From Flavobacteriales bacterium 34_180_T64 (GTDB lineage: Bacteria > Bacteroidota > Bacteroidia > Flavobacteriales > Flavobacteriaceae), in the NCBI GenBank assembly GCA_002162765.1, contig MAAR01000005.1, positions 1-64,000 of the forward strand: 64,000 nt of DNA. The letters are read 5' to 3'. A program made the translations under genes and the position numbers. Below, piece after piece: positions 15,987 to 23,494 of this stretch. Below the pieces are notes generated by a model. That model worked only from the letters and a program-made list of their open reading frames with translations. It searched no databases and had not been told where the DNA came from. The stretch's first letter is position 1; each line of letters starts with the position of its first letter.

Positions 15987-17504
15987 TTAGAACTTATAAC
16001 TAAGTCCTGTATATACACCAATAAAATAAGGTTGAAAATCTCCCGAACTATTATTGAATGTATTTATCTGATACTTGAACATCGGTTCAAGATTAATTTT
16101 AATTTTTTCTGAAACATTATAGTTTACACCAACACCTAGATTCGCACTATAACTTGTACTATTAATATTCGTTGCCTCTCCTATTAATGTTCTTTCACCC
16201 TCTAAATTTGAATAAATTTCATTTTTAGATAAAAACAAGGTGCTAAATCCACCGATAACATTTAAACCAATCTTTTTATTGATGAGGGAGTATTCAACTT
16301 CAAGAGGTATTTCAATAAAACCTAATTGCTGTTCTAGTGAACCTTTAATATTTGTATTCAGAATTTCAGGTGCAGAAGTGAGGTTTATTGATTCAGCACT
16401 TATAAAGATAGTTGCCTTCGAGTTGTTGTTATATTTTATGTTACTGCCTGCTCCATTTCTTGCGCCTATTCCACTGTATACAATAACGTTATTAGTGCTA
16501 TAACCCAAATTAACTTTATGAATACCGGCTCTAATTTTCAATTTTTCATTAAGTGCATAGCTTCCGCCAAGACCGTAACTCATATTTAGGTCTCCATTTT
16601 TAGTATTACCAATAAACTGCTCATGAATGGAAGAACCTTCTCCTAAAGTGTTGAAATAAACAGGTGCCACACTTGGAGAAATGTTCCACCTGTTTAGTTT
16701 CTCTTCTTCTTTTTCTTTTTCATTTGTGTTTTCAGCTAAAGCCATTGCATCTTCTATAGATGGACTTTCATCGGTTTCAGCTAAAATATCTTGCTCCGAA
16801 ATGGATTCATTTTCATTTAATGGAATTTGTTCTGTTTGTTTGGCAATAGCATTTTCTGGGCTTTCTTTACTATTTAAATCCAATGGCTCCAATTCGTTTT
16901 TAAGGATTACATTCGGATTAGGTTCAGGTAGATTTGAAGATTTTTTGGCAACTGTATATTTAGTGTTTTTACCAGTTGAATTATTAGGTTTTTGAGTAGC
17001 CGATGCGTTGGAATCGGATGTATTTGATTTTAAATTTTCACCATTTTTAGTTGTATTACTAGCAACGATATTTGGATTGTTGTTTCCTGGAGTGGTTAGA
17101 TTAGTATTCTTGTCTCTATTTGGATTCTGAACAAGATCATCATTAGATTTTGATTGGTCAGACACATCAAAATCTGTATTTGAAACAGGCTCTTTTTTTA
17201 GAGCCTCAGATTCCAATTCATTTGTAGAATTCTTATCAAGAATGTCATTAGTTGATGAATTTACGACAGGAAGATTGGTTTTATTATCTGTTTCTTTCAA
17301 TAATGCATTGGCAATTGTAAACATAAGAACCATTAGCGCAGCAACTCCGGCGACTCTCCACCAAAGCGGAATTAGAATTCTTCGTTTGCGCTTATCTTTA
17401 TGCAATGTATTATGGATGTTCTCCCAAACAGCATCATTAGGCGTCACCTCAAAATCCTTGAGGTTTTCTTGAAAAAGACGGTCTATGTTTTTTTTGTCAC
17501 TCAT
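15987..17504 (-). CDS. Predicted anti-sigma/outer-membrane beta-barrel fusion
   Basis: A 505-residue protein with an unusual layout. Residues 1-46 are polar and end in the basic stretch KDKRKRR (36-42). A single transmembrane helix follows at about 47-69 (LWWRVAGVAALMVLMF). Residues ~70-270 are a low-complexity Asn/Ser/Thr/Lys/Glu linker. Residues ~271-505 show alternating beta-strand patterns of an outer-membrane barrel and end in an aromatic residue (GLSYKF). By the positive-inside rule the N terminus is cytoplasmic. Its ATG overlaps the sigma gene stop (TAATG), so translation is coupled, and an anti-sigma role for the N-terminal tail is inferred. There is no zinc anti-sigma motif. It could alternatively be an ordinary barrel protein with an uncleaved anchor. 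Confidence 0.72.
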   Translation of the reverse strand: MSDKKNIDRLFQENLKDFEVTPNDAVWENIHNTLHKDKRKRRILIPLWWRVAGVAALMVLMFTIANALLKETDNKTNLPVVNSSTNDILDKNSTNELESEALKKEPVSNTDFDVSDQSKSNDDLVQNPNRDKNTNLTTPGNNNPNIVASNTTKNGENLKSNTSDSNASATQKPNNSTGKNTKYTVAKKSSNLPEPNPNVILKNELEPLDLNSKESPENAIAKQTEQIPLNENESISEQDILAETDESPSIEDAMALAENTNEKEKEEEKLNRWNISPSVAPVYFNTLGEGSSIHEQFIGNTKNGDLNMSYGLGGSYALNEKLKIRAGIHKVNLGYSTNNVIVYSGIGARNGAGSNIKYNNNSKATIFISAESINLTSAPEILNTNIKGSLEQQLGFIEIPLEVEYSLINKKIGLNVIGGFSTLFLSKNEIYSNLEGERTLIGEATNINSTSYSANLGVGVNYNVSEKIKINLEPMFKYQINTFNNSSGDFQPYFIGVYTGLSYKF

Positions 17505-18046
17505 TATAATAATTGCGAGTTTATGCTCGCTTTGTACTGTTCAATTTTATCTTTTAAAATCAAACGCGCTCTCGCTAGATTTGATTTTGAGGTTCCAGTT
17601 GAGATATGTAACATCTCAGCAATTTCTTTATGTGAATAATCATCTAACACATATAAATTAAAAACTAAGCGATAACGATCTGGCAATTCTTGAATAATTC
17701 CTAATAGAAAATCTACATTTATAGTATCATCATCAATTTCTATGCTAACATCTTCAATTTGATCTTCATTTATAATATCAAAAACACCAACACTTCTATA
17801 ACGTTGTAAAGCAGTGTTAATCGTAATTCGTTTCATCCAACCCTCTAAAGAACCTTTACTTTTATATTGTGATATTTTGTTGAAAATAGTCACAAACGCA
17901 TCTTGCAGATTATCTTCTGCTTCTACATAATTTTTCGAATACTTAAGACAAAGCGAAAATAATTTACTCGAAAAGAGCTTATATAATTGGCCTTGAGCTT
18001 TAGCATCGTTTTTTTTACAACGTTCAATGAGTTGTTCTAAACTCAA
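17504..18046 (-). CDS. ECF-type RNA polymerase sigma factor
   Basis: A 180-residue extracytoplasmic-function sigma factor. Region 2 (about 20-80) includes AEDNLQDAFVTIFNKISQY and the promoter-melting GWMKRITINTALQRYR. Region 4 (about 120-170) carries the helix-turn-helix DYSHKEIAEMLHISTGTSKSNLARAR. Regions 1 and 3 are absent, as expected. It is the middle gene of a three-gene operon, 30 nt after a lipoprotein gene and overlapping the barrel/anti-sigma gene by one base. A candidate self-recognised promoter lies upstream of the operon at 18522-18552. Confidence 0.93.
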   Translation of the reverse strand: MSLEQLIERCKKNDAKAQGQLYKLFSSKLFSLCLKYSKNYVEAEDNLQDAFVTIFNKISQYKSKGSLEGWMKRITINTALQRYRSVGVFDIINEDQIEDVSIEIDDDTINVDFLLGIIQELPDRYRLVFNLYVLDDYSHKEIAEMLHISTGTSKSNLARARLILKDKIEQYKASINSQLL

Positions 18047-18076
18047 ATTATTAAGGTGTTATGTTATTCCAAACTA

Positions 18077-18487
18077 TTATTCTACCACTGGGACTTCAAC
18101 TATATAATATAAGTCATTTCCATTCTCATCTTCTCCTTGCCAAAATCTAAATACATAGGTTCCATTATTGTTAACTATAAAATCAAATGAAACCTCTTCT
18201 GAAATTGATGTTTGTGCGCAATCTTGATTCGTATAAATGGTTGAGATTACAGCAATAGTCCTTTGATTTAATTCACTTACGTAATAAAAATCACTAAACA
18301 CATGACATCCAGATGGTTTATTATAGGTTACATAAATTGTGTAGACTTCACCTAATACAAATTCATTTGGCATGTCAACACTTTCAATGGGTAATATCTC
18401 ATACTCAAATGTCCGATTGTTGTCATCATTAATAGAACATGAAATTAACGACGCCAATAAAACCAATAGAAACACTACTTTTTTCAT
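18077..18487 (-). CDS. Lipoprotein of the ECF sigma operon
   Basis: A 136-residue predicted lipoprotein with lipobox SLISC (Cys17) and an all-beta-looking mature part with two further cysteines (SGCHVF and NQDCAQT) that could form a disulfide. I recognise no domain. It is the first gene of the operon with the sigma factor and the barrel fusion, and is preceded by the two-part promoter motif shared with the 30-codon ORF beyond recA. It may be an envelope sensor or a target of the response. Confidence 0.72.
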   Translation of the reverse strand: MKKVVFLLVLLASLISCSINDDNNRTFEYEILPIESVDMPNEFVLGEVYTIYVTYNKPSGCHVFSDFYYVSELNQRTIAVISTIYTNQDCAQTSISEEVSFDFIVNNNGTYVFRFWQGEDENGNDLYYIVEVPVVE

Positions 18488-18505
18488 ACATTATTTAGTT
18501 TGGTA

Positions 18506-18552
18506 TACACCTTTACATGGTGTAGATGCAGAATTCGTACAAAGGTTGCGTC
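18506..18552 (-). promoter_or_regulatory. Candidate ECF sigma promoter, operon copy, with overlapping inverted repeat
   Basis: On the minus strand TGACGCAACCTTT (18553-18541), ten bases, then TGCATCTAC (18530-18522). The AAC core of the upstream box and the spacing resemble ECF -35 and -10 elements. The same two blocks at the same spacing occur at 19665-19696 on the plus strand. An inverted repeat TACACC/GGTGTA (18506-18524) overlaps the downstream box and could be an operator. The ATG follows 34 nt after the -10-like box. Confidence 0.7.
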
Positions 18553-19664: not shown

Positions 19665-19696
19665 TGACGCAACCTTTTTGCACTTTTTGCATCTAC
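19665..19696 (+). promoter_or_regulatory. Candidate ECF sigma promoter, small-ORF copy
   Basis: TGACGCAACCTTT (19665-19677), ten bases, then TGCATCTAC (19688-19696). Both blocks and the spacer length are identical to the copy upstream of the lipoprotein-sigma operon on the other strand. The ATG of a 30-codon ORF follows 24 nt downstream. Confidence 0.7.
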
Positions 19697-19720
19697 TAAA
19701 TAACTAAGGGAAATCTTGCT

Positions 19721-19813
19721 ATGAAATTCTTTAAAAGAACCATTTTAAACAATGCATTAGGTGTTTCAATTGCTGTAAATATTAACAGTAATTGTAAAGC
19801 CGATGGTGGATAA
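19721..19813 (+). CDS. Small ORF, 30-residue peptide, unknown
   Basis: A short frame starting MKFFKRTILNNALGV and ending SNCKADGG. It has a basic start, a weakly hydrophobic middle, one Cys (position 25) and a Gly-Gly end. It is the only ORF in an otherwise empty 373-nt gap between recA and trhO. It is supported by a promoter-like motif 24 nt upstream and a strong terminator 53 nt downstream of its stop. The function is unknown. The transcript could instead act as a small RNA. Confidence 0.55.
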   Translation: MKFFKRTILNNALGVSIAVNINSNCKADGG

Positions 19814-19859
19814 CTCGTTTTTTTTTATTTAGAAGAATAAAAATATTAATAACGAGTTA
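19811..19859 (+). ncRNA. Nested stem-loop overlapping the small-ORF stop codon
   Basis: TAACTCGTT (19811-19819), whose first three bases are the stop codon, pairs with AACGAGTTA (19851-19859). Inside it TTTTTATT (19822-19829) pairs with AATAAAAA (19836-19843). The composite fold just before the terminator suggests a structured 3' UTR or a small RNA. Confidence 0.5.
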
Positions 19860-19865
19860 GTCCTC

Positions 19866-19899
19866 AAAAAGCGCTTTAGTCATAACTAAAGCGCTTTTT
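19866..19899 (+). terminator. Strong terminator of the small transcription unit
   Basis: AAAAAGCGCTTTAGT (19866-19880) and ACTAAAGCGCTTTTT (19885-19899) form a perfect 15-bp stem with a 4-nt loop and T-rich end. The only plus-strand unit it can serve is the 30-codon ORF, because recA runs the other way. Confidence 0.9.
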
Positions 19900-19925: not shown

Positions 19926-19933
19926 TATCTTTG
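19926..19933 (+). promoter_or_regulatory. TAnnTTTG promoter element of trhO
   Basis: TATCTTTG, 37 nt upstream of the trhO ATG. It matches the Bacteroidota -7 consensus. No clear -33 TTG. Confidence 0.5.
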
Positions 19934-19970
19934 CCCAAAATATTCTTTAATCTTATAAAATTAGTATAGC

Positions 19971-21002
19971 ATGCAACTGTACAATAACTTAAGTAATAAA
20001 GAAAGAGCTGAATTAATTGAAAAAGCGGGAAAAGACCGTTTGACTATCTCTTTCTATAAATATGCAAATATCGGAAACACCGATATTTTTAGAAACCATA
20101 TGTTTCTTGCTTGGGACGAATTGGAAGTACTTGGAAGAATCTATGTCGCCAAAGAAGGCATAAATGCACAATTATCGGTTCCTGCAGATAATTTTCAACA
20201 ATTTAAATCGCATTTAGATACCATCACATTTTTAGAGAATGTAAGATTAAACATTGCCGTTGAGCATGACAATTTTGCGTTCTTAAAACTAAAAGTGAAG
20301 GTTAGAAACAAAATTGTTGCTGATGGTTTAAACGATGATACTTTTGACGTGACCAATAAAGGGGTTCATGTCGAAGCAGAACAATTCAATCAATTGATTG
20401 AAGATGAAAACACAGTGCTCGTTGATATGCGCAATCATTATGAAAGTGAAATAGGACATTTTAAAAATGCGATAACTCCAGATGTTGATACATTTAGAGA
20501 GTCCTTAGATTTAATAGAAGAAGATCTTAAAACTCATAAAGAGGATAAGAATCTGGTAATGTATTGTACTGGTGGTATTCGATGTGAAAAGGCAAGTGCT
20601 TATTATAAACATAAAGGATTTAAAAACGTGTATCAACTCGAAGGCGGAATCATAAATTATGTGCGCCAAATCAATGAAAAAGGTTTAGAAAATAAATTTT
20701 TGGGAAAAAACTTTGTGTTTGACGAAAGACGCTCTGAACGTATTTCTGAAGACGTTATTTCAAATTGTCACCAATGTGGAAATCCAGCAGACTTGCACAC
20801 CAATTGCACGAATGAAGCCTGCCATTTATTATTTATTCAATGTAATGCCTGTAAAGAAAAAATGGAAAATTGTTGCTCTTCAAATTGTATGGAAATTAAT
20901 AAATTATCTTATGAGGAACAAAAAACATTACGTAGAGGCCAAGGGAATAGTAATGATATTTTCAAAAAAGGACGCTCACATTCTTTAACTTTCAAGAAAT
21001 AG
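19971..21002 (+). CDS. trhO: tRNA uridine(34) hydroxylase TrhO
   Basis: A 343-residue rhodanese-family enzyme (formerly YceA) that hydroxylates U34 of certain tRNAs in an O2-dependent route to 5-hydroxyuridine. It has an N-terminal acylphosphatase-like domain, a rhodanese domain with catalytic Cys199 in YCTGGIRCEKA, and a Cys-rich C-terminal segment (CHQCGNPADLHTNC and more) that probably binds zinc. It is followed after 2 nt by a U32 protein of the TrhP type, which serves the alternative route to the same modification. Confidence 0.92.
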   Translation: MQLYNNLSNKERAELIEKAGKDRLTISFYKYANIGNTDIFRNHMFLAWDELEVLGRIYVAKEGINAQLSVPADNFQQFKSHLDTITFLENVRLNIAVEHDNFAFLKLKVKVRNKIVADGLNDDTFDVTNKGVHVEAEQFNQLIEDENTVLVDMRNHYESEIGHFKNAITPDVDTFRESLDLIEEDLKTHKEDKNLVMYCTGGIRCEKASAYYKHKGFKNVYQLEGGIINYVRQINEKGLENKFLGKNFVFDERRSERISEDVISNCHQCGNPADLHTNCTNEACHLLFIQCNACKEKMENCCSSNCMEINKLSYEEQKTLRRGQGNSNDIFKKGRSHSLTFKK

Positions 21003-22489: not shown

Positions 22490-23494
22490 ATGAACGTTTA
22501 CAAACTGTTACAATTAAATAGACGCATCAAAAGTCATAGAGTAAAATTTCTAGGCCTTTATCTATTACATAAATTTAACAAACGTTATTTGGCAGTTAAT
22601 TTAGATCCTGTAATGGCTTGTAACTTACGTTGTAAGATGTGTTACTTTACAGATGAAGATTATGTAAAAACATTAAAAGGTCAGTTTAAAGATGAAGAGT
22701 TAAACTTAGTAGCAAAAGCTATTTTTAGTCGTGCTTTAAAACTTCAAATTGGATGTGGAACGGAGCCAACATTATACAAGAATTTGGTAAAGATTGTCGA
22801 GCTAGGGAAACAATACAAAGTGCCTTACATTTCATTAACTACGAATGCTAATCTATTAAATGAAGAAAAAATTGAAGCCCTTTTAAAAGCAGGTTTAAAT
22901 GAATTCACGATTTCGTTGCATGGAGTAACTAAAGAAAGTTATGAGAATTTCATGAAGAAAGCGAGTTATGAAAAGTTTCAAAACGCTTTTGAAGCTTTTG
23001 CTAAATTGAAATCAAAATACAATTTTAAAGTCAGAATAAACTACACGTTCAACAAGGATAATTTTTACGAATTGAAAGACTTCTTCAAGCACTTTGATGC
23101 TAAAAGTTTTGACATTCTTCAAATACGTCCAATTCAAAAAATCGGGAACACAGAATATAGTGATTTTGATATTTCTACTTTAGAACCAGATTACCCAATT
23201 TTGATTCAAACAATTAGGAAGACATGCAAATCGAATAATATCATTTTAATGGCGCCCGAAACCATTGGTAGTCTTAATTCTGAAAACCAATCAAGTTTTA
23301 TATTTGATTATACGTTTTGTTATATTTCGCCAAATAAATTCTGGAAAGAAGGATTCAATTGGAGAGAAGAGCATTTCAATGCGTTTTCAAAACGGATTAA
23401 CTGGAGTCAAGAACTTTTCTCAAATGTTTTTAAATCTAAAACACACCTCAAATCATTATCTAATAAGTTGAACTACGAAATTGAGTTTAATTAG
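22490..23494 (+). CDS. Radical SAM protein
   Basis: A 334-residue radical SAM enzyme. The cluster-binding CxxxCxxC is CNLRCKMC at about residues 44-51, preceded by LDPVMA, with a following glycine-rich GCGTEPTLY and the strand FTISLHGVTKESY. No C-terminal SPASM cysteine set is seen. The substrate is unknown. Its place at the end of the trhO-U32-ferredoxin operon suggests an RNA or cofactor role, but radical SAM enzymes with this core act on many molecules, including peptides and lipids. Confidence 0.82.
   Translation: MNVYKLLQLNRRIKSHRVKFLGLYLLHKFNKRYLAVNLDPVMACNLRCKMCYFTDEDYVKTLKGQFKDEELNLVAKAIFSRALKLQIGCGTEPTLYKNLVKIVELGKQYKVPYISLTTNANLLNEEKIEALLKAGLNEFTISLHGVTKESYENFMKKASYEKFQNAFEAFAKLKSKYNFKVRINYTFNKDNFYELKDFFKHFDAKSFDILQIRPIQKIGNTEYSDFDISTLEPDYPILIQTIRKTCKSNNIILMAPETIGSLNSENQSSFIFDYTFCYISPNKFWKEGFNWREEHFNAFSKRINWSQELFSNVFKSKTHLKSLSNKLNYEIEFN

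What the first reader, a model, noticed from the sequence alone, without database searches (positions are those of the whole stretch)
19721..19899. Hidden 30-codon transcription unit between recA and trhO
The 373-nt gap looks empty but contains a promoter-like motif, a 30-codon ORF and a perfect 15-bp stem terminator that no other plus-strand gene could need. The peptide has a basic start, one Cys and a Gly-Gly end. Such a unit could be a small effector peptide or a dual-function small RNA of the ECF regulon.
Basis: partly seen in the sequence, partly recalled or inferred. Interest (0 to 1): 0.72.

Follow-up and report, generated by a model that had tools for sequence, protein, structure and literature searches.

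The report
Stress-sigma peptide and structured RNA gene
Between recA and trhO lies a real, apparently undescribed small gene, conserved across many marine flavobacteria, that is probably switched on by a stress sigma factor and makes a short RNA which both encodes a 30-amino-acid peptide and carries conserved folded elements, some of which outlast the peptide where it has been lost.

Summary
The 373-nt gap contains an ECF-type promoter (19668-19695), a 30-codon ORF (19721-19813) and a perfect 15-bp terminator (19866-19899). The ORF is a conserved gene: clear homologues in about 75 of 397 Flavobacteriaceae genomes, in nearly all shown to lie next to recA, usually between recA and trhO. The peptide is M[KR][FY]...CKxDGG-stop, with Gly-Gly in 75/75. 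dN/dS is 0.28 in frame against about 1.0 in shifted frames. The same promoter motif fronts the neighbouring lipoprotein-sigma-anti-sigma operon and other lipoprotein genes. The RNA also has two selected hairpins: one inside the ORF (covariation, more stable than synonymous-codon shuffles), one containing the stop codon (paired in 121/122 distinct loci). Some 29 loci without the peptide keep the promoter and 5' leader element; about half keep a UAACU motif, and two genera keep the ORF hairpin with the ORF destroyed. The RNA therefore probably has a function of its own: a dual-function RNA of an envelope-stress ECF regulon is the best reading. No Pfam, NCBIfam or Rfam family matches. Expression, targets and the peptide's activity are untested.

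The parts
19668..19695 (+). ECF-type promoter CGCAACC-N13-TGCATCTA
   Evidence: 5 copies in genome, 0 in reversed control; seen upstream of nearly every peptide locus; shared with ECF operon
19708..19726 (+). conserved 5' leader element GGGAAATCTTGCTATGAAA; in the window its ATG is the ORF start, in most relatives it lies upstream of the ORF
   Evidence: kept in 29 loci that lack the peptide
19721..19813 (+). 30-codon ORF, peptide MKFFKRTILNNALGVSIAVNINSNCKADGG
19755..19805 (+). hairpin H1 inside the ORF (codons 12-29): outer GGY/GCC plus CAUU/GAUG, inner stem 19767-19777 with 19784-19794
   Evidence: retained without the ORF in L329, L330 and L334
19808..19862 (+). hairpin H2, TAACTCGTT (19811-19819) with AACGAGTTA (19851-19859); contains the stop codon in its stem
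19866..19899 (+). intrinsic terminator, 15-bp stem, 4-nt loop
   Evidence: a terminator-like hairpin with T run is visible downstream of the ORF in the relatives
18523..18550 (-). same promoter motif in front of the lipoprotein-sigma-anti-sigma operon
18077..18487 (-). lipoprotein, first gene of the ECF operon
17504..18046 (-). ECF sigma factor (inferred activator)
15987..17504 (-). putative anti-sigma factor with beta-barrel-like C-terminus; orthologue within about 2-6 kb of the small ORF in 30/30 genomes tested
19926..19933 (+). TATCTTTG, likely separate -7 element of trhO downstream of the terminator
   Evidence: sequence; TAnnTTTG consensus of Bacteroidota from general knowledge

Best explanation
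It is a small gene of an envelope-stress ECF sigma regulon that makes a dual-function RNA. Steps: (1) The sigma factor encoded at 17504-18046, once released from its anti-sigma factor, transcribes a ~200-nt RNA from the promoter at 19668-19695 that ends at the terminator (inferred from the shared promoter motif). (2) The RNA is translated into a 30-residue peptide with a conserved KxDGG C-terminus (shown by codon-level selection). (3) The RNA also acts as RNA, through its 5' leader element and the UAACUCG/CGAGUUA region (constraint and retention without the peptide shown; action by base pairing inferred). (4) H1 and the stop-codon stem H2 can form only when no ribosome is on that stretch, so translation would open both and expose the conserved 3' strand of H2; translation may thus gate the RNA activity (inferred). 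(5) The peptide probably acts at or near the membrane, like the other regulon products (weak inference).
For: Coding: dN/dS 0.28 over 45 independent pairs, 0.27 for codons 2-11 outside H1, about 1.0 in shifted frames; length 28-31 aa, C-terminal GG 75/75 and D 74/75 (the GG count partly reflects a filter, but all stronger homologues have the GG end except the degraded copy L113). A search by DNA pattern for the end of the gene, which fixes only the last codons and the stem, gave 80 named loci that all open into the same kind of peptide. ECF link: same motif at the ECF operon, at lipoprotein and secreted-protein genes and at a second tiny peptide gene; anti-sigma orthologue close by in 30/30. 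RNA: H1 folds more stably than the same peptide written with shuffled synonymous codons (mean z -1.98) and covaries (116 double-change cells against 33 +/- 8 in shuffles; score 0.291 against 0.216 +/- 0.007); H2 pairs the stop codon in 121/122 distinct loci; the 3' arm of H2 is more conserved than its 5' partners. Retention without peptide: 29 loci keep promoter and 5' element; 14 of them keep the UAACU motif (0.09 expected after shuffling); H1 persists with a dead ORF in two genera.
Against: No expression data. No enrichment of near-exact target sites for the H2 3' arm, so trans base pairing is undemonstrated. The 5' element search required GCTATGAAA, so conservation of those letters in the no-peptide set is by selection of the loci. 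Related sequences are not independent, and the shuffle controls do not remove that. In the window the 5' element doubles as the start-codon context, so part of its conservation may be translational.
Confidence: 0.6

Rival explanations
1. A plain small-protein gene of the ECF regulon: the peptide is the only functional product, and the leader, H1 and H2 merely tune translation or stability of its mRNA.
For: Strong codon-level selection over the whole ORF; the leader element is the start-codon context in the window and several relatives.
Against: Loci that lack the peptide keep the promoter, leader element, a terminator and often the UAACU motif; H1 persists with a dead ORF in two genera.
Confidence: 0.25
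2. A leader-peptide attenuator for trhO: ribosome stalling at DGG-stop melts H2 and lets transcription run on into trhO.
For: The 30-residue peptide would lie wholly inside the exit tunnel at its stop codon and has conserved C-terminal residues; the stop codon lies in a stem; a terminator follows; trhO is codirectional.
Against: H2 and the terminator do not overlap, so no alternative antiterminator is visible. A TAnnTTTG element lies between the terminator and trhO. In G014 a trhP-like gene, not trhO, follows. Stop codons TAA, TAG and TGA all occur.
Confidence: 0.06
3. A minimal lipoprotein or exported peptide whose mature form is about CKADGG.
For: Basic N-terminus, moderately hydrophobic middle, Cys at -6 in 67/75; other regulon members are lipoproteins.
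Against: Lipobox not met: three residues before the Cys is Asn in 58/75 and the residue just before it is Asn in 34/75; 8/75 lack the Cys at that position; the hydrophobic stretch is weak or broken by charges in several members.
Confidence: 0.07
4. A noncoding sRNA in which the ORF is incidental.
For: RNA elements outlast the ORF.
Against: dN/dS 0.28 in frame against about 1.0 out of frame, including codons outside H1; all four bases are used at the third position of the invariant Gly codons.
Confidence: 0.02

Closest known systems
Dual-function RNA VcdRP of Vibrio cholerae, encoding the 29-aa VcdP (PMC8672173, abstract seen)
   Same: short RNA that encodes a peptide of about 30 aa and also acts as RNA
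   Different: no sequence relation claimed or tested; here the candidate regulator is an ECF sigma factor, the ORF overlaps conserved hairpins and the stop codon is inside a stem; RNA targets unknown
SigmaE-dependent sRNAs, for example FoxJ of Fusobacterium nucleatum (PMC11005410, listed) and MicA/RybB of E. coli (general knowledge)
   Same: small RNA driven by an envelope-stress ECF sigma factor
   Different: those are regarded as noncoding; this one carries a conserved ORF
Leader-peptide attenuators such as TnaC (general knowledge)
   Same: short ORF with conserved C-terminal residues, hairpin at the stop codon, terminator downstream
   Different: no competing antiterminator seen, apparent separate downstream promoter, downstream gene not constant
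Small stress-induced membrane peptides of bacteria (general knowledge)
   Same: tiny basic-N-terminus peptide in a stress regulon
   Different: hydrophobicity not conserved; a KxDGG C-terminus is

Membership tests
Dual-function (coding and regulatory) small RNA | short independent transcription unit with own promoter and terminator | tested here: met
   promoter and terminator sequences conserved around the ORF; transcription itself not measured
Dual-function (coding and regulatory) small RNA | translated ORF under selection | tested here: met
   dN/dS 0.28 in frame, about 1.0 shifted; translation itself not measured
Dual-function (coding and regulatory) small RNA | RNA-level conserved elements beyond coding | tested here: met
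Dual-function (coding and regulatory) small RNA | base pairing with target mRNAs or another RNA-level regulatory act | tested here: inconclusive
   14-mer complement of the H2 3' arm not enriched over control in 7 genomes; other elements not tested
ECF regulon of the adjacent sigma factor | same promoter motif as the ECF operon | tested here: met
ECF regulon of the adjacent sigma factor | transcription depends on this sigma factor | not testable with these tools
   needs an expression experiment
Bacterial lipoprotein | lipobox [LVI][ASTVI][GAS]C | tested here: not met
   Asn three before the Cys in 58/75, Asn just before it in 34/75, Cys absent at -6 in 8/75
Leader-peptide transcription attenuator | mutually exclusive antiterminator and terminator | tested here: not met
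   H2 and the terminator do not overlap in the 16 folded transcripts; only minimum-free-energy folds examined
Known Rfam family | match above gathering score | tested here: not met
Known Pfam or NCBIfam family | match above curated cut-off | tested here: not met
   no match to the peptide

The most novel reading that the evidence does not exclude
A translation-gated dual-function RNA: ribosomes translating the 30-codon ORF melt H1 and the stop-codon stem H2, freeing the conserved UAAUAACGAGUUAGUC strand (and the leader element) to regulate envelope genes, while the DGG-ended peptide acts separately. It would be an ECF-driven dual-function RNA of Flavobacteriaceae in which some lineages have discarded the peptide and kept the RNA.
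Probability: 0.3. Interest if true: 0.82.

Novelty: new variant of a known kind. Interest (0 to 1): 0.64.

Why it matters
It is a gene absent from the protein and RNA family libraries searched, yet conserved in more than 100 genomes of common marine flavobacteria (Winogradskyella, Psychroserpens, Bizionia, Lacinutrix, Olleya, Gelidibacter, Xanthomarina and others). It gives a concrete entry to the output of a little-studied ECF envelope regulon, and a natural experiment (lineages with and without the peptide but with the RNA) for separating the two functions of a dual-function RNA.

Tried and rejected
Sigma-70 promoter scan: nothing relevant on the plus strand. Rfam at gathering score and with relaxed E-value: only matches below gathering score, many on the terminator hairpin. 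Pfam and NCBIfam: no match to the peptide. Lipoprotein reading rejected on lipobox statistics. trhO attenuator judged unlikely for lack of an antiterminator. Target search with the complement of the H2 3' arm: no enrichment. AlphaFold: one helix, residues 2-27, mean pLDDT 70, pTM 0.25: not informative. Literature: no paper found on this gene (open-licence papers only). A first H2 count used a faulty pattern that skipped most loci; it was redone.

Full report
Observation. The promoter is not of sigma-70 type but CGCAACC-N13-TGCATCTA at 19668-19695. This pattern occurs five times in the 3.16-Mb genome, never when reversed, and another copy lies in front of the operon on the other side of recA, which encodes a lipoprotein, an ECF sigma factor and a putative anti-sigma factor with a beta-barrel-like end.

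Conservation. DNA comparison found the interval in sister genera with the same ORF. A profile search of 397 Flavobacteriaceae genomes gave about 75 clear homologues. recA was found upstream and divergent in essentially all recovered loci, and trhO downstream in most; where trhO was not seen, some loci end too soon or the gene differs. In G014 a trhP-like gene follows instead. In a sample of 246 genomes of the order, only five hits were found, all within the same family.

The peptide. 75 distinct peptides are 28-31 aa long (67 of them exactly 30), mostly start M[KR][FY], and end [KR]xDGG; Gly-Gly is invariant, Asp 74/75, Cys at -6 in 67/75. The Gly-Gly end and the M[KR][FYLI] start were used as filters when collecting peptides. 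Of the homologues that failed the filter, L106, L107 and L121 have the GG end but a different N-terminus, L113 is a degraded copy and L123 is unrelated. Over 45 independent pairs dN/dS is 0.28 (0.27 in codons 2-11, 0.28 in codons 12-30); the two shifted frames give about 1.0 overall (first version). The ORF is therefore very probably translated and selected.

The RNA. Folding showed two further hairpins. H1 lies inside codons 12-29. It is more stable than the same peptide encoded with shuffled synonymous codons (mean z -1.98; 85% of sequences below -1) and shows covariation on an ungapped alignment of 106 sequences (116 double-change cells against 33 +/- 8; score 0.291 against 0.216 +/- 0.007; with partners slid by 1-3 columns 0.03-0.16). 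H2 pairs the last Gly codon and the stop codon with a sequence some 40-60 nt downstream; the stop codon is paired in 121 of 122 distinct loci (mean z -4.7), and the upper stem switches pair types. Beyond the core pairs, the 3' strand of H2 (AAUAACGAG) is 94-100% conserved at the three positions next to the core in the main class, while the facing 5' positions vary and, beyond the first, pair in only about half of sequences. That strand thus seems to carry information beyond pairing.

Peptide lost, RNA kept. The promoter plus leader element occurs in 73 of 397 genomes, including many with no peptide (a few matches are instead promoters of lipoprotein genes). In 29 loci without the peptide the leader GGRAAAAUUUUGCUAUGAAA is largely kept (for most of them the last nine letters were part of the search; the rest were not), and 14 keep an [AG]A[CT]TA[AG]CT motif between leader and terminator, against 0.09 expected after shuffling. 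In G171/G352 (one genus) and G350 (another) an H1-like hairpin is still foldable, with different inner stems, although the ORF is destroyed. These loci are related, so the counts overstate the number of events, but they point to an RNA-level function.

Regulon. The anti-sigma orthologue lies within about 2-6 kb of the gene in 30/30 positive genomes examined; most peptide-negative genomes also have one, so the operon is more widespread than the small gene. Other promoter matches front lipoprotein and secreted-protein genes, and a second tiny peptide family, MKILIIISxLIVVNLILLxFSVNKKTEP, has the same promoter in 16 loci read (15 by pattern, one by eye). The regulon thus looks like an envelope response.

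Interpretation. Best supported is an ECF-driven dual-function RNA. Shown: conserved unit, coding selection, RNA structure selection, shared promoter motif, retention of RNA elements without the peptide. Inferred: dependence on this sigma factor, regulatory action by base pairing, gating of H1/H2 by translation, membrane-related role of the peptide. The main rival, a plain small-protein mRNA, does not explain the retained RNA in peptide-free lineages.

Noticed in passing
G139:C1:341649 (L236), G018:C3:438605 (L038), L266-L283: A second tiny ECF-controlled peptide, MKILIIISxLIVVNLILLxFSVNKKTEP (about 28 aa, single hydrophobic segment), with the same CGCAACC...CATCTA promoter about 50 nt upstream in 16 loci read.
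   Followed up: partly
window 15987-18550; L124, L217, L221, L225, L234: The ECF promoter motif recurs in front of lipoprotein genes, including the first gene of the lipoprotein-sigma-anti-sigma operon next to recA, so the regulon looks dominated by lipoproteins and exported proteins.
   Followed up: partly
G139:C1, for example 251410, 253579 and 255877: GCAACCGATTTCTTAGCCACTCATCTA recurs identically about a dozen times in G139, probably inside a repeated element rather than as promoters.
   Followed up: no
window 19926-19933 and 19955-19975: TATCTTTG between the terminator and trhO is a likely separate trhO promoter; the sequence AATTAGTATAGCATGCAACTG at the trhO start is strikingly conserved across genera, including its noncoding part.
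   Followed up: no
window 22490-23494: A radical SAM protein follows trhO, a trhP-like U32 peptidase gene and a ferredoxin-like gene; it scores far below every curated NCBIfam cut-off among the matches shown.
   Followed up: no
L163, L168, L178, L185, L186: Winogradskyella versions replace NSSC by FCCC/FGCC while keeping an inner H1 stem in a different sequence, suggesting RNA pairing shapes the amino acids there.
   Followed up: partly
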